Shown piece by piece: positions 12,231-62,576 of a stretch of 64,000 nucleotides of DNA. Each line of letters starts with the position of its first letter. Positions within the stretch are counted from its first letter, which is position 1. The notes below the pieces were generated by a model, which saw nothing but the letters and a program-made list of their open reading frames with translations, had not been told where the DNA came from and searched no databases. The stretch is taken from the NCBI GenBank assembly GCA_022661535.1, contig JAKULF010000003.1, positions 372,001 to 436,000 on the forward strand. The letters run 5' to 3'. Source of the DNA: Eutypa lata. Its lineage: Eukaryota > Ascomycota > Sordariomycetes > Xylariales > Diatrypaceae. Position numbers and translations under genes: made by a program.

Positions 12231-15200
12231 CTATTTGTACCTACAGAGCGCCTCACAACTATTGGTAATTATATCTTCCATATGTTCGTATTCATCAGGC
12301 AGCGAATATATCCAACGCAAAAAACCCTTCCCAATAACGGCCTCAAACTCTCGTCTCCACTCGCTCTTTTCCGGATCAGGCGCCTGCCAGCCATCGCGTA
12401 CGTCAAGCCTAGATTCGTCGACTTCTCTTACCGCAATGCACTGAACGTCGAATTCAACACTGGCGATGTCTTGCGCAATCTCAAATTCTATTTCGTCTGG
12501 CGCAACAGGCCGCTTGACCCTGTTAAAGAATTCACTCAACCACTTCGCATATGTAATGAAAATAGAATTACACTCATTACGAACTGCAAAACACCCCACA
12601 CATCTAAATTCGGTGAAGCAACCAGTCTTATTGTAAAAGGGATAAAAATAAAATGGTATGGTCCAATCGACTTTGTGATGCTCGAACTCCAGAGGCCAGT
12701 CTGAAATGATTGCACGGAAAATGTCTAGATACCCAGCGTTACCACGCCAGTAGATATCATTCGACAAGAAGACATGAAATGGAGTTATTGCCATAGTCAA
12801 AAAGCCGAGCTTAATTTCCGAGCATTTCGCGTTCGGGTGAGCGCCTCCGTATAGCAACAACCATTTGATGGTATCCCTGAAACTACCCAACCTTTTCATA
12901 TCCCTGTTAACATCAGAACTAGGTGATTTGTCCTCCACTACTCGATGTTCAAGGTCTATTATAGGGTGGTACCAACCCAATTCGTCAAGGCCATACACGC
13001 TCGCATAATTCAAAATTGAGGACTTTTCTTCTAAAGACAACGCCTCGAAAGCTTTATGTTGTTGAGATAGAAACCCGACGTTACCGTGTTGGGCAGCCTG
13101 CATGAAGAGGTGGAAATCTGAATATTGTTGTGGTTCTCGCGGTTGTACCAAATTTCTAAAGTCCAGGAGATGCTTCGTCGCTTCTTGAGATGTTATATAA
13201 TCTGCACATGTTAAGCTGGTGATTAGGTTCGTGTAGTGAGAGAACATGAATCCGCCCACTTCCTTATAATAGCATATCTGCTTCATAATCTCAGCAGGGT
13301 GGAGTAATCTCTCTTTGGTTGATCTACCATCAACGAGAAGAATCTCATGCCCCTGTTTTGTACTGAGTAGAAATTCTGTCACAGAACGATGAATGAAGTT
13401 GACCTTGCAACCACTTAGTAGCGGATTAACTGAAGTCATGGATGTATTGGCGGGAATCCCGTGTATCTCGAGCAAACCGGCGCTCCTAGCAGAGAGCCAT
13501 TTTTCATATTCCTTCAAAATTTGTTTTTCTTCGGTAATCGCGAATGTCGTGACCTTGAGATGTAGCATAATATCGGAGAGAAGGGTTTCATGAGTACCAA
13601 GGATAAATCCCGTGACAGTATCCAGTTGAGACCCCCGACCTCCATTAGTATGTGCGTGCAGAGCATACCATAGTAACCTTGCTGTCTCTTCCTTATAGTA
13701 GTGTTGGTTGGCATTTTGCCTTTCCCACATTTGCTGGAAGAGTCGATAGAGGTCGGGTTCTAGCTCTTGAGTTCGCTTGTATAAGGTATCCCAAGAGTCA
13801 CCATTTCGGATACCATCGATGACGCTTTTGGTTGCTAATCTAACCCAGAGGAACACTCCAGATGCATTGTTAACAAGAGATTCAACTAATGCGCGGTAGG
13901 ATCTCAGGTCGGTGGGAATATATGGTTTATGTGGAGCTAAACATTTCCAGACATAAACTTTTATAGCGGACTTAGTGAGTGTTTCTGTTTGTAAGCACGG
14001 GTATAGACCGAGAGTCTGCTGGAATAAATTTTCCGGGCGGCTGGAGACGCAGACTTTTACGTTCGGATAATCACTTAGTTTCTTCACCAAGTTAATCATG
14101 GAATCGCGGTCTTTTGATCGTACCTCCATCTCATCGAGGCTATTAAGAAAGAGGCAGAATCGAGAGCCTTTAACGCGTAGAGCCTCGAGAAGATAACCCT
14201 GAAGTTCCTTTAGAGATTAATCATGTTCTGATTGTTTTGGTTTTAAGCGTGGTTTGATTTGTAACAAAAGGTCGAGGGTATGTGGCTTCGAGGCGAAGAT
14301 TTGATGTAGCAATGCACGGAGGCACACTCGAAACTGTCGTTGTAGACGATTCTCCCCTAGTTCTATAAAAAAGTATCGACATATCGCCACATTGGGCCCT
14401 TATTTATCAAGGCAATCTTTTGTACGTTGATCTTGGATTAGGAACTTTATTAACGTAGACTTGCCACTTCCAGCCTTGCCCGATATCCAGAATATGGGGT
14501 TATTTGCTTCAAGCCATTGGCGGAACTGATTGGAACGTCTGCGAGCAGCATCTTGCTGAGCACTGTCTGGAGGATAGAAGTCCAAATATGCATTCTTGGA
14601 CTTTGCATCTTCATTCTCTTTCTCGAATATCCATCTCATTGTGTTTTCTGGAACTTTCTGGATGTCGTTCTCGCGTGCAATCATCTTAGGAAACCAGAGC
14701 GTAGAAAGGATGCGGCTTCTCAACCTTTCTTGCTCTTTACGTAGGGCGTCCGTCTGCCGACCTAATTCGAAGTTTTCTTGGATTCTGGATGCTTCTAAGG
14801 TGACGTGGTCTCTCGTTGCAAGGTGCTGGGCGTCCACATGTGTTCTATGAGCTTGAGATGTCGTCTTAATGTCGTTTCTCATCACTCGGGATTCGGCTGC
14901 GGTACGCTCCCTCGTTTCTTGTGCTTCTGCGGATATGAGTGTTGCCACTGTAACAGATGAAGTTAGCAATTGCTTCTCTATGGATATCTCAACTAGTCGC
15001 GAAAGTTTCTCAGGGGTTCTAGCTCATTTGAGTGACTTAAAGTACTTTAGCACTGCAGCTAGCTAGAAATAGTAGAAGGTAACTTGAAATTGCTTACAGT
15101 CTTTATGTCCTTGGGACCAGAGGTATATGAATCGCTTGGTTTCTCGACTGAGGCCTGTAGAATAGTTGTGTCAATGAATCCAAATGGGAAAGATATGATG

Positions 15201-15905
15201 TCGACACGAGGATTGAGTACTTACCAGCGAAAGCCTCCTCTGATTGAGCAGCCATTGCCCGATTTGAAGAGCTAGCATATTGGTTAGCATCTCATAATGA
15301 CATGTGATAACACGTGAAAGTATGTCTTGCATATGATCTACAGACTTCTGTAAACGTATACATCACGACTGCAGGAAATTCGGGTTACTGGAGTAATTAC
15401 CATATTCTCATCAAGAATTCAGTGTTTAGGATGTCATGGGCCTTCAGAATCTTTCTTTCTAAGTCATTGATGACACGTCTATATCGAAATTTGTACTTGA
15501 AAACCACCGCCCAGGCTTTTATTCTAGAAGTGGGATTCGATATCTTTTGTGCTGTATCTTGAAGATTCTTTGAATCTCGCAGTAGGTCGGATGCGAGCAC
15601 TTGGAGCCTATGTTTATCTTCTTGCTCTTGCTGTTGGTTCGTAGTCCCAGGCGACTGAACCGCGTCGAACTCATCGAGTCTGGTAGTCAGGGTGGAAAGC
15701 AACTTGTTGAACTGTTCGGAATGTGATTTCAGGCCTGGGTCGGGACCACCTGTATTACTTTCATTAGTAAGAGCCAAGGGAGTGATAACCTGAAGAGTAC
15801 AGCACCGTCTTCGCACACCCTACGGCAGAGTCGAAAGAGCTCGCCGGTGAATGAGACCGCTTGCATCACATTGCAGACAAGTGACAAGGTCGCTATCGCC
15901 TCCAT
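12231..15905 (-). pseudogene. NACHT/STAND NLR-type protein with three in-frame stops
   Basis: Five exons on the minus strand assemble cleanly: 15806-15905, 15401-15749, 15225-15271, 15098-15154 and 12231-15052. The start at 15905 gives MEAIATLSLVCNVMQAVSFT, the typical first helix of fungal STAND N-terminal domains. Later come the helical effector-like region, SRETKRFIYLWSQGHKD, the Walker A motif GKAGSGKST (about residues 376-384), the Walker B-like FCLFLNSLDE and the VCVSSRPE sensor. The C-terminal half has no WD40 or ankyrin repeats. The last exon stays in one frame for about 2.8 kb but has three stops: TGA at 15024-15026, TAA at 14400-14402 and TAA at 14217-14219. Such proteins act in non-self recognition and programmed cell death. 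This copy could make only a truncated product unless the stops are read through. Confidence 0.85.
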
Positions 15906-52895: not shown

Positions 52896-53735
52896 GGTGA
52901 GTGCCGCAAAGAAGGCTGTGTATACCGCCGTGCCAGGCTGGCGAGTCCAGATGCTTGGGCATGATGCGTGACTTAGCTGCTGTCGCCTAGGTTTGTTTTG
53001 AAAAGGCTAGCTGTGAAAATGGACAAATGTGAAGTGACGACCCAGCGCGGTCTTGGTGGAATATTAAGGTTATAGACTAGAGCTCAACGAGATCTACCTG
53101 GTTGCGGTTTCTCACAAAACATCTCTTCGTAAGGTGGCCGCGCATTATCTATACCCACTACCTATTAAGGCCAACTAATATCAGGTTGTAAGGTAAGGGA
53201 GATAATATTGTCCTACCAGCGACCAACGTACAGACCGACTAACCTGATAGAGGGCTACATCTGGCAACTAACGTTGTTATGTTACCTTGTATATCATATA
53301 TTTGGATGACCAGGTGGCAAGTTGCTCCCAAAATAATCAACATTGTCTACTATACATCTATCTACTTACGTAACCCACATATATTCTAATTATAATATGA
53401 TTAAAATGAAAATTAGAATAAGCTCACGATTATGATCCTCAATATAGAATAATCACTGATTATTACCAACGAACCGAGTATTATTCAAATTATAGCTTTT
53501 GACGTGTCATTTAATTTGGCAACAGTTACATGGGACGAATGGACCATAATAGAGGTAAACAAATAAATATATCGCCAAGTTGCTATACTTTCTTATTTTA
53601 TCATTTGCAGGTATTGATAACATAAAGAAGTTGTTACGATACACACCCTGATAATAGGTTATACATATAATGGGTTGTATGTACGATATGTAAATACCTA
53701 GGTAGATAATAGGTAGATATAGCATTAGGGAATAA
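52896..53735. other. Intergenic up to the retrotransposon edge
   Basis: Apart from the probable 5' part of the hydrolase gene (52896 to about 52960) no gene is seen. AT content rises toward the element, but normal dinucleotide mix persists until its edge. Confidence 0.5.
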
Positions 53736-54035
53736 TGTGCTTTCTAATCCTGCTTCCTATAACCCCAAATGCTTACGTAATATATTCATTTTAAGATTCT
53801 TTAAAACTTAAAACTCGAAACTAATTAATTAAAAAAAAAAAAAAAAAAATTATTTAATAATTAATAAATCTTATAAATATTAAAATATAAAACGAATTTT
53901 TTAAAAAATTTATAATAATTTTTTCATTATAAATTTACATATTATAAATTTTTTATTATATAATCTTTTTATTATAAAAAGCTTTATTATATTATATAAT
54001 ATAAAATTTTTATTATTTAACTTTAAAAATTTATA
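53736..54035. repeat. Left LTR of the outer element
   Basis: 300 bases that line up with 61211-61510. The first 40 bases (tgtgctttctaatcctgc) keep their G and C, whereas the inner 230 are A/T-only apart from CG steps. Differences from the right LTR are almost all C/T or G/A. Confidence 0.88.
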
Positions 54036-57000
54036 TTACTTTTTTTATTTTAAATAATTATTTTAATTATTTTAATTTAATAAACTTTATAAATATTATC
54101 GATTTTATTTAAATAATTACTTATTTATATATTATAAGTTTCGTATAAAATAATCGTCGTTTACGTAAATAAAAAATAAATTAATTTCGTTATATTTTAA
54201 TAAAAACGCGATTTTTTTAAAACTTTATATACGATATATATTTCTTAAATAATAATTTGTTATAATTTAAAATTTATCGTAATAAAGTTTATATTTTTTT
54301 TCGCGTTAATAAATTCGTAACATTTAATTTTTTATAATATAAATTCGAATTAAACTTTTCTTTTTTTATAAATACGTTTAAATTTAATTTCGTAACGCTT
54401 TTAAACCGTTATAATAATTCTTAACCATAAGCATTTTATATTATTTAATTAATTACTTTTTAAAGTTTATTTTTTTTTCTTTAATTAATTTTTAAACGTA
54501 TTCGAAAAGCTTTATTTAAAGTTATTTTTATAAAAGTTACGTTTTAAACATTAAAAAATAATTATTATAATCGTTTAATTTAAATGTTTTATTATATATC
54601 GTTATTACTTTTTAAAATAAATACGATAAATTTAATATAAAATTAATTTAATATTTTCGTAATATAATTCTTTTAATATTATCATTAACTTTTTTTATTT
54701 TATCGTTTTTACGAAGTTAAATTAATGTAATAAGTTTTATTATCGATTTATATTATTAATATTATTTTCGTATTTTATAATTATTAAACGCATCGATATT
54801 ATTATTAATTTATTCTTTTAAATAATTAAAAGTTATTTTAATTCGTTTAATTATAAGTATTATATTAATAAATTATATAAAAGATATAAATTATGTTTTT
54901 ATTTAATTTATAACGTATTTTATAATTATAAAAATTTTAAATTAATTAATAAATATATAATTAATCGTTTAACGTATAAAAAATATAAGTAATATAATTA
55001 ATTATAAATTAAATAATAAAAAGTTAAACTTTTTTATTAATTAATATATAAAGCATTTAAGTATAATTTATTATATTATTAAAGTAATTTTTAAATATTA
55101 AAATTACTTTAAAGCATTTTATATTAAAACTTTAATAATTAAATAATTTTAATTATAATGAATTTTTTTTAAATTTATTATTAAATTATTATATTTAATT
55201 ATTTTTTATAAAGTTTTTATTTTTATTATTATATTTATTATATATAAAAGGTTTTTTAAATATCTTTTATTTATTATTATTTTATATAACTTTTTTTAAT
55301 AAAAAATAAAGTTTTTATATATTTATTTTTTTTATAATATAAATAATAATATCGTTTCGTATTAAAAGTATTTATATATAATTTATAAATTAATTCGATT
55401 TAATTAATTAAAGTTTCGAATTAAATTAAGTTAATTTTTAATTAAATACGTTTAATTTTATATATTTTCGATAAAACGTAATAAATAATTTATAAAAATA
55501 TTTATTTTATTTAATTTATAAAAGATTTATATATTATAATGTTTAATAATATTAAAAAATTTAACGATTTATATTAATTATTTAATTTTTATATTTAATG
55601 TTTTAAATAATTTATAATTTATTATTATTATTACGTTTTTTTCTTTTATTTAATGTTATTAATATTATAAAGTTAATATTATTTTTAAAAGTTTTCTTTT
55701 TTAAATTATATATTTCGTTTATATATTTATAAGCTTTTTTAAAAAGTAAATTATAAAATAAAAAATTATTTCGTTTCGTTTTTTATATAAATAAAGTTAT
55801 AAAAAAACTACGTTAATATAACGTTAAAAAGCATTAGTTTTTATAATATAAAAAATTTATTAATTAAATTTTCGTACGATAAGTATTATTATAATTACGT
55901 CGCGAATTTATCGTTAAGTTATTTTAACTTTAATATTTAAAGTAATTTTATAATTTTTTAAACTTTTAATTAACTTTATTAAAAATATTAATATTTTCGA
56001 ATAATTTATAATTAAATAACGAAAATAACTTATTATATTAACGAAAACTTATATTTTAATTATAATTTTTAATTTCGATCGTTTTTATTTTATTAATACT
56101 TTAATTAAGTTAACTTTAATATTTTTTTTTAATATAACAAATTTAAAAAATATTTTTTTACAAATAAATATAATTAACTTTACGGCGTTAATTATTATAT
56201 CGTAATTTAATAATCGTTAAAATAACGTTTTTACTTTTATATAAAGTTATTTTAAAATTTTTTTTTATATTATAATATTATTAATTATATTTAAAACGAA
56301 TTTTTAAAATAATATTAAAATCTTTTTTATTAAAGTTTAAAAGATTATTAATATATTATAAAAATTAAAAAATATTATTATTTATTTATATAAATCGAAT
56401 AAAGTTATAAAAGTCGTTTTTTTTTTATATAATTTATAAATTTTAATATATTAAAAATCGTTTTTAAAGTTTATAAAATAATAATATCGATACTTTATTA
56501 TTTATTAAATTTTATTCGTTACGTTTAATAATAAATAAGCGTTTTTTTTAATAATTTTATTAAGTTTTTAATAATTATAATAAAAACGTTAAATAATATA
56601 AATATTATTTTTATTTAATTTTTATTATTTATTTAAATACTTTTTTAAATATTAATAAAGTTAATGTTATTTAAAGTTTTTAATCGTTTTATATAGTTTT
56701 TAAAATATATTTTTATATAAAATCTTATATTACTTTTAATTATATTAAATTATATTTTTATAATAATAATTTAATAAATAAGTAATTATTTATATTAATG
56801 TAATATTTAATTTTTATTTTAATATTTTTACGTTTTTTAATAAATTTAAATAATTTTAAAAATTATTTAATATATTTTCGTAAATACGTTTTAATTATAA
56901 AATCGTTAATAAATGTTTTTTTATATTAATTTACTTTCGGTTTTTTTAATTATATATATATTATTTTAATTATATAATTATTTATATATTAAAATAATAT

Positions 57001-57138
57001 TTCGTTAATTAATATTAAATATAATATTAACTTTTTTAATATTTTATTTAAAATTATATTTTTATTTTTTTTATTATAATTATATTATATTTTAAATTTA
57101 TAAAATATATTTTTTTTTAAAATTAATTTACTTAAAAA

Positions 57139-57384
57139 TGTTATTACGAATTAAATAAAAAAACGTATTACGTAATTTTAAACATTTAAAAAATAAATAA
57201 AAATAACAAGTTAATAAAAAAAAAAAAAATATAACAATAACTAATACTTTTAAACTATTTATATATAAATAAAATAAATTCTTTAAAAATTCTTTTTATT
57301 ATAAATATTTTTTTATTATCTTAATCACTTAACCATTATTATAACCACTTAACTTATACGTATTATTTAAAATAAATCGTAACA
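57139..57384. repeat. Left LTR of the nested element
   Basis: About 246 bases from tgttattacgaattaaat to aaataaatcgtaaca. It includes a poly(A) run and the string ttataaccacttaactt, which appears as ttataattacttaattt in the other copy, that is, C-to-T differences. Confidence 0.8.
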
Positions 57385-58938
57385 TTATCTTTTTAACGTA
57401 TTAAACTTCGTTTCGAAGTTATATAAATTTTAAATATTAAAAAACTTTAAGCAAAATCTTTAATAATTAAACGATATATATCGTTAATCTTATCTTTCGT
57501 ATTCGTATTATTCGAATTATTATTATCCTTTACATTAAACTTATCGATAACGATTACTTTTTAAGTTATAAGTTTATACGTAATTATAATTAATTATTTA
57601 AAACAATTCTTTACGAAATAATTTAAAACATTACATTTTTAACACTTATTATTACGTTACCATTCGTTTTTTTAAACTTAAATTAACGAAAAAATTATAA
57701 ATTTTAAATAAATAAAAGCTACGTTAACGTTTATTAACTTACGTAAATTAATAATAAAGCTATTAAGCTTTTATACATTAATAATAAGTTTTAAATTATT
57801 AATACTTTAATATAATTTAATTAAGTTAAATATTAATTTAATAATATTTAAAATAATATTTATTACATTAAAACGTTAATAATTAAAATAACTAAAATAA
57901 TAATTTATATAAATATAAATATAACTTTTATTATAAAATTAACGATAAAGTTTTTTAATAAAAGTTAAATATATAAATAATAAAACTTTAAAGTTATTAA
58001 CTTTAATTTATAAACGATTTAAAAAAACTTATCGAAACTTTTAAATACGTTAATTATTCGTTATTTCATCGATATCGTTACAAGCGTTATATAAAACTCG
58101 CTTTTAATTAATTAAAAATTAACGAAAAAAATCATCGTTTTTTATTTTTATTTTTTTAAACTTAACTTTATTATATAATTATTTATTAAAATTATCGTAA
58201 AAGTAATTAAAAGCGTTAAGGATTTTAATCAACGCTTTAAATTATTTATTTATACGCTTAATATATTATAATTACGAAATAATTAAGTTTTTAACCTTTA
58301 ATTTTAAACGATTATAAATATAATAAATACGAATATAATTATTATCGATAATAAAACCGTTAACTTATATTTTACCTTTTATTTTAAAAAGTTATATATC
58401 GTATAAAATAAAGCCGTTTAATTTCATTACATTAAGTAATTTAACTTTAATCAATAAAGTTTTAATTAAAATATTAACTTTATTATTTAAAGTATTAATT
58501 TCGACTTTAAATTAAATTATTAATTAATTTCGTACAAAAATAACAATAGCTTTAATAACTTTTTACATTTTATAAGCATTAATAATTATTATTTTATAAA
58601 ATAACGAAGTAATTTATTTAACATTTAAGTTTTAATTAAACGAAATAATTTATTTAACGTTAATATTTATATCGAAAAAAACGAAAAATTTATCGAAAAA
58701 AATAAAAGTTATAAAGCACCTTTAAAGTTTAACGTAATCGAAAAAAATATCAAAAACGAAAACGTAAATATAATAATCGTTAATAAAAATAACCTTTTAA
58801 TTTAAAATACCTTTAAAGCTTAATAGATTTAATAAAGTTCATTATACTTTATATGCGTTAAAATTTAAAAATCGAAAAAATTAAAAAGTATATTTAACGG
58901 CTTTAACTTTAAATATTAAAAACGAAAAAACTTATTAT

Positions 58939-59182
58939 TATATTACGAATTAAATAAAAAAACGTATTACGTAATTCTAAACACTTAAAAAATAAATAAA
59001 AATAACAAGTTAATAAAAAAAAAAAAATATAATAATAATTAATATTTTTAAATTATTTATATATAAATAAAATAAATCCTTTAAAAATTCTTTTTATTAT
59101 AAATGCCTTTTCATTATTTTAATTACTTAATCATTATTATAATTACTTAATTTATACGTATTATTTAAAATAAATCGTAACA
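58939..59182. repeat. Right LTR of the nested element
   Basis: Lines up along its whole length with 57139-57384 and ends in aaataaatcgtaaca. The left boundary is slightly uncertain because the first few bases have changed. Confidence 0.78.
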
Positions 59183-61210
59183 AATATTTCGTTTAATATA
59201 ACTTTAACGAATATTATAAACTTATATATATATAATGTATTTTTTAATTTAAATTTAATTATTATTAATACGTTTTATTAAATTCGTAATTTTAATTTAT
59301 TTATTCTTTTTATTATAAATAATTATATAATATTATATATAAATTATATTTTTATTAAAAATTATAAAGCGTAATAAAAAATATAATCGTAATTAAAAAA
59401 AACATTAAAAAAGTAATTATTTATTATTTTTATTTTAAATAAATTATAAGTTTATTAATAACTTTTTTTTATAAATTTATTTTATATAAATTTAAGTTTT
59501 TTATTAACATTTACGTTAATTAAATAAACGCGGTTTTTTTAATTTTTATTTTCAAATAATTTAAAAAAAAAATTTAATTTTTATTTATATTTAAATTTAT
59601 TTTATTATAATTTTTTCGTTAAACTTTTATTATTTTTATTATTTTTATTAACTTTATTATTAATAAAATATATTTTTAATTTAATTTTACTTTTTTATTT
59701 ATTAAAAGTTAATTTAAATTTAATATATTTAAAATTATTATTATTATATAAAGTTTTTTTAAAAATAATTTTTTTATTTTTTTAACGTTTATTATTAAAA
59801 AACTTAACTTTTTTTTAATAATTTTTTATTTAATAATCTTTTATTTTATAATTAAAGTATATATTATCATTCGTTATAATTACGTAATTATGTTTTTTTA
59901 TAAAGTTAATTTTTTAATCGTTATATTTTAAATTTAAAATTTAATTTAATTTTAACGTTATTAATATTATTATAATAATATTTAATTATTTTAAATATAT
60001 TATATTTAATTTATTTAATATAACTTTAAAAATCTTTAAATTATAAAACGAAATAAAGATTTTATATAATTAAACGATTACTTTTAAAATATTATAAATT
60101 TTATTTTCGATTTTACGATAAATTATTATAAAAGTTTTTTATATTACTTTTTTAATTATTTATTATATATTTTATTAATTAATATAATCGTATATAAATA
60201 ATTAAATAATTAATATATATATTTAAAAAAAAATAAATAAATACTTTTTTATTATAATAAATATTACGATATCTTTATAATAATTAATAAAAAGCTTTAT
60301 AAATATAACGCATAAAATTAATTAAACTTTTATTTTAATAAAATAATAAAATTAAAAACTTTATTATAAATTTATAAAATTAATAATAATTATTTAAAAC
60401 TTAAATTATTATTTTAAAAAATATTATTTAATTAAGTTTTTATAACTTTACGTAAATTATAACTTATTAAAAGTTATTTATTAATTTAATAAAAACACGT
60501 TATATTTAAAAATTATAAAAAATAAATACTTATTAAAGTTAATATTAAATCTTTCATAACTTATTAAATATCGTTTCGTTAATTTAAACGAACTTTAAAT
60601 TTAATAAAAACACAACTTTATTTTTACTTTTATACTTCGAAAAAGTTATAACTTTAAAAAATAAAATTACTTTCGATTAAAATATTTTAATTCGCTTTTT
60701 TTATATTATTATAACTTTTATTTTCGAATTAAATTTTTTAAAATTTAATCGTTTATTTAACTTTTATTTTATATTAACTTATTAAATAAAGTTTTTAACG
60801 TAAAAAAAAAAATTCTTTTATAATATATTAATTATAAAAAGTATTAATATTAATTTTAATATTATTTTTAATATTATATTTTAATTTATAATTAAAATAA
60901 TAATTAAATTTTAAATTAAATCTTTTAATTATTATATATTTTAATTATTTTATTCGATATTATAATTTATTTTTATAAATTAACTTTTTAACTTTTTATT
61001 AAATTCGTTTAATTTAATATATATTTAATTATTAAATTTACTTAAGCCGGCTTTATTAACTTAATATAAAGTTATACATAATAAATCGTTACTTTATAAT
61101 ATTACGAAAATATTAAAAACGAATAAAAAAAATAAATTAAAAAATAAATAAATAAATAAAAATGTTATTATTTTTACTTAATATAACATAAGCTTATAAA
61201 AATAACTATT

Positions 61211-61510
61211 TATACTTTTTAATCTCGCTTTTTATAACCTTAAATACTTACGTAATATATTTACTTTAAGATTTTTTAAAATTTAAAACTTAAAATTAAT
61301 TAATTAAAAAAAAAAAAAAAAAAATTATTTAATAATTAATAAGTTTTATAAATATTAAAATATAAAACGAATTTCTTAAAAATTTTATAATAACTTTTTC
61401 ATTATAAATTTATATATTATAAATTTCTTATTATATAGTCTTCTTATTGTAAGAGGCTCCATTGTATTACATAATATGGGATTCCCATTATCTAGCCCTA
61501 GGGATCCACA
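61211..61510. repeat. Right LTR of the outer element
   Basis: 300 bases matching 53736-54035. Here the outer 70 bases (about 61440-61510) keep original G and C, for example gggattcccattatctag, while the left copy reads aaaatttttattatttaa at the same positions. It starts TATAC where the left copy has TGTGC. Confidence 0.88.
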
Positions 61511-62272: not shown

Positions 62273-62380
62273 TATGAGCAAATAGTACATCAAAAAAGAC
62301 TATAATCAACGCTAGTATATATGAGACGCACAACGTTGCAATCTTCCACCCAAGCTGCGCGCAGATTAGCTGAATCCGTG

Positions 62381-62490
62381 GATGCATTGGCGGGAATCCT
62401 GTGTATTTTAAGCAAACCGGCACTTTTAGAGGAGAGCCAATTTTCATATTCCTTCAAAATGTGATTTTCCTCAATAACTAATTGCGAATG
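62381..62490 (-). pseudogene. Fragment of a second NLR (NACHT) gene copy
   Basis: About 90 bases (62381-62471) line up without gaps with 13441-13531 inside the NLR pseudogene, with roughly 84% identity counted by eye. On the minus strand the fragment reads ILKEYENWLSSKSAGLLKIH, against ILKEYEKWLSARSAGLLEIH in the larger copy. Upstream of it the matching FAI residues are in another frame, so it is a frameshifted relic. Most differences replace C or G by T or A in this copy. No other NLR domain is found nearby. Confidence 0.8.
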
Positions 62491-62576
62491 TAGGAATGAA
62501 TGCCCTATGAAAATCGCTGCATCGTCCAGCTCCTATATTTTGCATAAAACTGAATATTTAGGTCAATTTTATATCT

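What the first reader, a model, noticed from the sequence alone, without database searches (positions are those of the whole stretch)
12231..15905. NLR gene complete except for three in-frame stops, each one C-to-T change from a sense codon
All five exons, splice sites and the NACHT motifs are preserved in one reading frame over more than 3.3 kb of coding sequence. The only lesions I see are TGA at 15024-15026 and TAA at 14400-14402 and 14217-14219. TGA can arise from CGA and TAA from CAA by a single C-to-T. Point nonsense without indels in an NLR gene is what RIP or selection against a self-recognition allele would leave. A standing polymorphism in this species, with intact alleles in other strains, is likely.
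Basis: partly seen in the sequence, partly recalled or inferred. Interest (0 to 1): 0.8.

Follow-up and report, generated by a model that had tools for sequence, protein, structure and literature searches.

The report
Fungal immune-receptor gene, disabled allele
This is a fungal NLR (immune or self-recognition receptor) gene whose ATP-binding core carries a sharp patch of mostly one-directional mutations with two stop codons, while an intact version of what looks like the same gene is present in other public sequence data, so it is probably a broken allele circulating next to a working one.

Summary
Partly confirmed. The NLR gene is real (minus strand, five exons, 1,089 codons; SesA/HeLo-like N-terminus inferred, NACHT, DUF7791), but only two of the three stops are coding. 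The TGA at 15024-15026 lies in a 150-base intron (15097-14948); full-length Xylaria homologues align across that junction without gaps. Both TAA stops are real, but relatives have tryptophan there, not glutamine, so each needs two G-to-A changes. They are not the only lesions. Against a near-identical intact protein from public assemblies (P0001, 853/883 identical), 26 of 30 differences fall in residues 259-470, the NACHT core. There 21 of 30 minimal base changes are G-to-A on the coding strand, at most one is C-to-T, and the Walker B aspartate (35 of 35 relatives) is lost. The stop-bearing allele recurs in other assemblies: P0121 is exact over 160 aa and listed on 10 contigs; P0125 is a sub-variant with a later frameshift. 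Best reading: a null allele circulating beside an intact one, made by a strand-biased RIP-like tract, in place or imported by conversion. RNA editing or readthrough is unlikely to restore it. RIP-inactivated fungal NLRs are known; the unusual part is a short bounded tract in a gene that is now single-copy.

The parts
15806..15905 (-). exon 1, start codon 15905-15903 (MEAIATLSLVCNVMQ...)
   Evidence: closely similar N-terminus in P0003-P0005 and in a second frame of L002
15401..15749 (-). exon 2
   Evidence: residues 1-258 are 130/247, 122/243 and 114/246 identical to P0003, P0004, P0005
15225..15271 (-). exon 3
15098..15154 (-). exon 4 (...GLSRETKRFIYLWSQGHKD)
   Evidence: GTAAGC donor, GCTAAC branch-like site, TTACAG acceptor; homologues have no residues here
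12231..14947 (-). exon 5: NACHT (NPHP3_N PF24883, NACHT PF05729), DUF7791 PF25053 and C-terminus; normal stop 12233-12231
   Evidence: Pfam on P0001
14400..14402 (-). premature stop TAA, codon 367; 31 of 34 aligned relatives have Trp
14217..14219 (-). premature stop TAA, codon 428; 34 of 34 aligned relatives have Trp
14142..14144 (-). codon 453, Walker B aspartate lost (FLDGLDE in P0001, FLNSLDE here); Asp in 35 of 35 relatives
14091..14726 (-). mutated tract, about 0.64 kb (codons 259-470), 26 of the 30 differences from the intact protein P0001
62361..62491 (-). relic of a partial copy of this gene (matches 13547-13421, 80% identical DNA), outside the tract, beside the AT-rich block
53500..61300 (.). 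AT-rich block, 10.9% GC, composite RIP index 0.88-1.05 per kb from 54 to 61 kb; shows that RIP-like mutation has acted in this genome

Best explanation
The gene is a non-functional (null) allele of a single-copy NLR. In intact alleles an N-terminal SesA/HeLo-like helical bundle (inferred), a NACHT nucleotide-binding switch and a C-terminal sensing part would form a receptor that oligomerises on ligand binding and triggers a fungal cell-death or defence response (inferred from the family). In this haplotype the NACHT core was hit by a strand-biased C-to-T process on the template strand (G-to-A on the coding strand), most likely RIP in one or a few rounds. It left two ochre stops at conserved tryptophans and 24 other altered residues, the Walker B aspartate among them. 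The null haplotype persisted beside the intact one, and at least one sub-lineage of it has gained a frameshift near residue 825. Shown: the stops, their Trp ancestry, the tract, the G-to-A bias, an intact protein elsewhere, recurrence of the null allele and a frameshifted sub-variant. Inferred: RIP as the agent, allelism and conspecificity of P0001, loss of function. Unresolved: whether the tract was made in place (next to a lost partial duplicate) or imported by gene conversion from a mutated copy.
For: P0001 is intact over 883 aa and 853/883 identical. Of the 671 compared residues outside codons 259-470, 667 are identical. In the tract 18 of 26 sites need only G-to-A; 21 of 30 minimal changes are G-to-A against at most 1 C-to-T. 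Two sister NLRs compared with their near-identical database proteins lack the bias: 2 of 7 changes for L002/P0007, 5.5 of 26 for L003/P0034. In Neurospora crosses 91.9% of RIP clusters are all C-to-T or all G-to-A (PMC7296669, passages). Changed fraction of G's by context, read on the template strand: CpA 9/40, CpC 4/26, CpT 7/48, CpG 1/29 (I assigned the contexts by hand, the second G of each Trp as CpC); CpG is also the least depleted context in the AT-rich block. The focal state is derived at positions invariant or nearly so in relatives. The genome carries two C5-methyltransferase genes that look RID/Masc1-like (by the recalled EQT motif). P0121 is an exact match to the piece that ends at the first TAA, 7 members, 10 contigs; P0125 carries the focal residues at the tract end and then a frameshift.
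Against: No duplicate that could trigger classical RIP is present now: own-genome DNA searches find only pieces of one paralogue at 63-78% identity and a 127-base relic outside the tract. Bulk RIP indices of the gene are normal. The single-context tests for CpA excess and CpG avoidance are not significant (P 0.12 and 0.08). Seven tract sites are not explained by G-to-A, more than in the flanks (7/212 against 3/671, P 0.003); simple in-place RIP does not predict that, an imported segment does. Not all sites can be polarised: the focal residue also occurs in relatives at, for example, 290 (24 of 35), 355 (14), 431 (8), 434 and 459 (7 each). Silent sites of the intact allele could not be read. 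Both ruined Trp codons have both G's changed while the other three Trp codons of the tract are untouched, which independent hits would rarely give. Clustering alone is not special: L003 against P0034 is also clustered. P0121's contigs could include reassemblies of the same isolate.
Confidence: 0.72

Rival explanations
1. The tract was not mutated in place: gene conversion or recombination copied it from a diverged, already RIP-mutated copy of the gene that this strain no longer holds.
For: Sharp limits (0 differences in residues 207-258, 4 in 471-1089) and an excess of non-G-to-A sites inside the tract (7/212 against 3/671). A relic of a partial copy lies about 48 kb away.
Against: No donor found in this genome. 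The relic does not cover the tract. Paralogue L002 shares the focal residue at only 2 of the 26 sites (290 and 459).
Confidence: 0.35
2. Ordinary decay of an unneeded gene by spontaneous mutation, without RIP.
For: Bulk RIP indices are normal. Some transversions and A-to-G changes are present. A frameshift occurs in a sub-variant.
Against: Clustering and the 21:1 strand asymmetry. No indel and 4 differences over the 619 codons downstream of the tract.
Confidence: 0.1
3. P0001 is not an allele but a second locus (or a very close species), so the database shows an intact paralogue and a mutated paralogue rather than a polymorphism.
Against: Near-identity outside the tract (667/671) and no second copy found in this 54.5-Mb genome.
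Confidence: 0.15
4. The gene works: the stops are removed by A-to-I editing or readthrough, as in premature-stop genes of Fusarium.
For: Both stops stand where relatives have Trp, as in UAG-to-UGG correction in filamentous ascomycetes (PMC11156358, passages).
Against: Both stops are UAA. A single edit gives UGA, which that review calls stop-retaining, so two adjacent edits would be needed at each stop. The Walker B Asp and other near-invariant residues are also lost, and a null sub-variant has a frameshift.
Confidence: 0.03
5. Sequencing or assembly error.
For: None found.
Against: P0121 is exactly the 160-aa product ahead of the first stop, listed on 10 contigs of at most 50,973 bases, while this contig has 6.7 Mb; P0125 begins at the first Met after the second stop with the same tract-end residues.
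Confidence: 0.01

Closest known systems
NWDp1 and NWDp2, RIP-inactivated NACHT-WD pseudogenes of the het-d/het-e NLR family in Podospora anserina (PMC1805685, passages seen)
   Same: Fungal NLR genes with nonsense mutations in the NACHT region attributed to RIP, the 3' (WD) part largely spared.
   Different: Those are heavily mutated, low-GC extra loci, with low CpA/TpA and TpG/TpA ratios reaching at least 750 bp into both flanks. Here a single-copy gene has a short bounded tract, normal bulk indices and an intact counterpart elsewhere.
het-Vb polymorphism in Neurospora (PMC9262711, passages seen)
   Same: A candidate allorecognition gene that is polymorphic for full and pseudogenised copies within species, different taxa having their own premature stops.
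   Different: Neither RIP nor a localised tract is mentioned for it in the passages I saw, and they do not describe het-Vb as an NLR.
Strand-biased RIP clusters in Neurospora crassa crosses (PMC7296669, passages seen)
   Same: Clusters all C-to-T or all G-to-A, over 60% of mutations within 100 bp of the next.
   Different: Mostly in duplicated DNA; coding sequence is said to be largely avoided there.
Genes with premature stops corrected by A-to-I editing in Fusarium (PMC11156358, passages seen)
   Same: In-frame stops that stand for Trp.
   Different: Those are UAG; here UAA plus catalytic-site loss.

Membership tests
Fungal NLR (NACHT/STAND) | NACHT-type P-loop domain with Walker A and Walker B | tested here: met
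   Intact P0001: PF24883 8.5e-28, NACHT PF05729 2e-9. The focal allele keeps Walker A (GKAGSGKST) but not the Walker B Asp. The model of relative P0003 matches STAND proteins such as MalT, CED-4 and Apaf-1, among ORC/Cdc6 and other ATPases (low TM-scores, multidomain).
Fungal NLR (NACHT/STAND) | N-terminal effector domain | tested here: inconclusive
   No N-terminal Pfam hit in P0003-P0005; SesA PF17107 in 4 of 38 members of A1; four long N-terminal helices in the model of P0003.
Fungal NLR (NACHT/STAND) | C-terminal sensing repeats (ANK, TPR, WD40, HEAT); usual but not universal | tested here: inconclusive
   No repeat family among the Pfam hits printed; only DUF7791 beyond the NACHT (in one search the first 25 of 50 families were shown). 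Many fungal NLR C-termini are unannotated.
RIP-mutated sequence | clustered C:G to T:A transitions, one strand per round | tested here: met
   21 G-to-A against at most 1 C-to-T in about 0.64 kb, inferred from amino acids; 9 of 30 minimal changes are of other kinds or the C-to-T.
RIP-mutated sequence | CpA preference | tested here: inconclusive
   CpA has the highest rate and CpG the lowest, not significant.
RIP-mutated sequence | target is a duplicate, classically over about 400 bp and 80% identity (as stated in PMC1805685) | tested here: not met
   No such copy found in the present genome. A past duplicate is not excluded; so it is filed as RIP-like, not as proven RIP.
RIP-mutated sequence | RIP active in the species' past | tested here: met
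   AT-rich block with composite index about 1 and CpA density down 9-fold; RID-like methyltransferase genes.
Restoratively A-to-I edited gene | UAG stop that one edit turns into UGG, rest of the gene intact | tested here: not met
   Stops are UAA and catalytic residues are lost.
Segregating null allele | same lesion in independent isolates and intact alleles in the same species | tested here: inconclusive
   P0121, P0125 and P0001. P0125 differs from the focal allele (frameshift, residues 650 and 659), so at least two null haplotypes exist; organism and strain names are not given.

The most novel reading that the evidence does not exclude
RIP (or a RIP-like deaminating process) acts on a single-copy NLR gene through weak homology between the NACHT cores of paralogues, repeatedly producing null receptor alleles that are kept at intermediate frequency beside intact ones, so that genome defence itself supplies the on/off polymorphism of fungal self-recognition receptors.
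Probability: 0.1. Interest if true: 0.75.

Novelty: new member of a known kind. Interest (0 to 1): 0.42.

Why it matters
Fungal NLR repertoires grow by duplication, while RIP attacks duplicates; how the two coexist is open. A single-copy NLR with an intact and a RIP-like null haplotype in circulation gives a concrete locus where one can ask whether broken receptors are kept by selection (relaxed incompatibility) or drift, and whether RIP reaches genes whose only partners are distant paralogues.

Tried and rejected
Introns over the two TAA codons: rejected, since the homologues shown are colinear there without length change. Conversion from the nearest paralogue L002: rejected, since it shares the focal residue at only 2 of 26 sites. 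Bulk RIP indices, CpN ratios and third-position composition: not informative at this length (four-fold G is low in the tract but also in L002's NACHT). RIP aimed by L002 homology: not favoured, since DNA identity to L002 is no higher in the tract (0.60) than beside it (0.61 and 0.62). Fold of the RNA around the stops: no clear hairpin-loop placement for either TAA. Rfam on the window at gathering threshold: one tRNA only. Neighbouring genes (2EXR, alpha/beta hydrolase), judged by Pfam name only, show no obvious partner role. Error corrected: an earlier count gave 20 G-to-A-only sites and 22 substitutions; the right counts, are 18 sites and 21 substitutions.
Full report
WHAT WAS CHECKED. The window is 64 kb of contig 10 of a 54.5-Mb, 29-contig fungal genome. 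The gene runs on the minus strand from 15905 to 12231. I modelled five exons (15905-15806, 15749-15401, 15271-15225, 15154-15098, 14947-12231), giving 1,089 codons plus the final stop, with exactly two internal stops, TAA at 14402-14400 and 14219-14217. A translated search of the genome with the intact homologue P0001 also reports '2 TAA' in this gene.

THE TGA IS INTRONIC. Splicing it joins GHKD to LATLISAEAQ. P0003, P0004 and P0005 (Xylaria, 1,083-1,095 aa) and P0032 read straight through this point with no gap and no extra residues; so does the paralogue L003, and L002 is continuous at the junction.

THE TAA STOPS REPLACE TRYPTOPHANS. I aligned 35 relatives: P0002-P0034, 33 of the 120 listed proteins, plus the paralogues L002 and L003. 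At the first stop 31 of the 34 that align have Trp (two Arg, one Gln), at the second 34 of 34. The intact protein P0001 has Trp at both. So CAA-to-TAA is wrong; each stop needs two G-to-A changes.

AN INTACT COUNTERPART. P0001 (883 aa, source 'lgn', cluster of 34 member sequences, contig of 32 kb) covers codons 207-1089 and is 853/883 identical. No second copy was found in this genome: the next hit is a paralogue at 44-46% identity. The differences are not spread: 26 of 30 lie in codons 259-470, none in 207-258, four in 471-1089. Nothing is known about codons 1-206 of the intact form.

THE TRACT. Of the 26 tract sites, 18 need only G-to-A on the coding strand, one needs G-to-A plus another change, and seven need something else. 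In minimal base changes that is 21 G-to-A of 30, with at most one C-to-T, at residue 290, where the focal residue (Trp) is the one most relatives share, 24 of 35. In the focal tract as it stands, non-synonymous opportunities for G-to-A and C-to-T are about equal (91 and 84). As controls, L002 against P0007 gives 2 of 7 and L003 against P0034 gives 5.5 of 26 G-to-A. L003's differences are clustered too, so clustering alone is not special; the one-direction bias is. The focal state is derived at N274 (35 of 35 relatives keep it), G392 (33 of 33 aligned), G454 (31 of 35) and the Walker B aspartate D453 (35 of 35) (the matching D434 of P0003 is invariant in the 38-member alignment). At other sites (for example 355, 431, 434, 459) some relatives share the focal residue, so these cannot be polarised. 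The receptor's ATPase would be dead even if the stops were read through (inference).

WHY RIP-LIKE. RIP clusters in Neurospora are strand-pure in 91.9% of cases (PMC7296669, passages only). This genome bears the mark of RIP: the block 53.5-61.3 kb has 10.9% GC, and against the first 52 kb of the window CpA density falls from 66 to 7 per kb per strand, CpC 56 to 3, CpT 64 to 19 and CpG only 47 to 25. In the tract the changed fraction of G's, read on the template strand, is CpA 9/40, CpC 4/26, CpT 7/48, CpG 1/29 (contexts assigned by hand). CpA is highest and CpG lowest, but no single test is significant. Genes with RID/Masc1-like methyltransferase domains are present (identification by the EQT motif is recalled and was not found in PMC2432034).

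WHAT DOES NOT FIT. Classical RIP needs a duplicate, and none was found: only L002 at 63% over 1,066 bases (with shorter pieces of 70-113 bases at 76-78%), and a 127-base, 80% relic at 62361-62491 that matches the gene outside the tract. The L002 identity is not higher in the tract (0.60) than beside it (0.61 in codons 185-258, 0.62 in 471-600). Non-G-to-A sites are over-represented in the tract (7/212 against 3/671), which favours import of a diverged, mutated segment over mutation in place. Both lost Trp codons have both G's changed while three other Trp codons are untouched; I cannot explain this. Silent sites could not be compared because no DNA of the intact allele was available.

THE NULL ALLELE IS NOT UNIQUE. 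The 160-aa piece from M207 to the first TAA has an exact database match, P0121 (7 members, 10 contigs, longest 50,973 bases; sources are not shown because the window encodes it). The C-terminal search found P0125 (372 aa, 22 members, longest contig also 50,973), which begins at residue 458, the first Met after the second stop, carries the focal residues at 459, 463 and 470, differs at 650 and 659, and leaves the frame at residue 825 with SPQF, as a one-base deletion in the A-run at 13027-13024 would give. That P0121's longest contig and P0125's are the same is inferred from the equal length. So error is very unlikely, at least two null haplotypes exist, and one is decaying further. Some of P0121's contigs could be reassemblies of one isolate. 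Member counts (34, 7, 22) are cluster sizes, not allele frequencies.

HOW IT WOULD WORK WHEN INTACT. Domains: N-terminal helical bundle (four long helices in the model of P0003, mean pLDDT 79.7; SesA PF17107 in 4 of 38 members), NACHT (38 of 38 members match NPHP3_N, 36 match NACHT), DUF7791 and an unannotated C-terminus. The model resembles STAND ATPases (MalT, CED-4, Apaf-1, NRC4) and also ORC/Cdc6 ATPases (low TM-scores). By family knowledge such receptors oligomerise on ligand binding and start a cell-death or defence response; no partner gene or ligand was identified.

AGAINST RESTORATION. In ascomycete A-to-I editing UAG becomes UGG, while UAA to UGA keeps the stop (PMC11156358, passages). 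Two adjacent edits at each of two stops, plus correction of the Walker B and other sites, would be needed.

COMPARED WITH WHAT IS KNOWN. RIP-killed NLR paralogues (NWDp1/2) and intact/pseudogene polymorphism at a candidate allorecognition gene (het-Vb) are both in print (PMC1805685 and PMC9262711, passages). My searches for NLR, RIP, null alleles and stop codons together listed, by title and abstract start, no paper on a bounded RIP-like tract in a single-copy NLR with an intact allele; one search showed 20 of 272 papers and the library is open-access only, so this is weak evidence of absence. Verdict: a good new instance of a known kind, with one puzzling feature, the short tract without a visible duplicate.

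Noticed in passing
L027:2448-2450 (G000:C13, base 620247): Another NLR of this genome has a 936-codon frame broken by one TAG only, at or within a few residues of the Trp that matches the first stop of the focal gene (the pairwise alignments differ by a few residues), with Walker A and B intact. It is a candidate for restorative A-to-I editing (UAG to UGG) or a fresh nonsense mutation.
   Followed up: partly
L028:2362-3044 minus (G000:C1, about 10.4-11.0 kb from the contig start): NLR remnant near a contig end with four in-frame stops, all TAG, one at the Trp of the FLW motif. Of 42 own-genome hits to P0001 only this, the previous one and the focal gene have stops.
   Followed up: partly
53500-61300: AT-rich block, 10.9% GC, in which CpG is strongly retained (observed/expected 8.7) while CpA and CpC are nearly gone: the local RIP-like process seems to spare CpG.
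   Followed up: partly
62361-62491: Short relic (80% DNA identity) of this same NLR gene, minus strand, between a 180-codon frame and the AT-rich block.
   Followed up: partly
L016, L017 (G000:C6:51583-52455; C5:2280895-2281886): Two RID/Masc1-like cytosine methyltransferase genes rather than one, plus a DIM-2-like gene (L015) and a 465-codon methyltransferase frame of bacterial look (L014). Names by recalled motifs.
   Followed up: no
L003 against P0034: A sister NLR differs from its near-identical database protein mainly in two clusters (frame codons 556-570 and 838-898), without G-to-A bias: a possible diversity hot spot in the C-terminal part.
   Followed up: no
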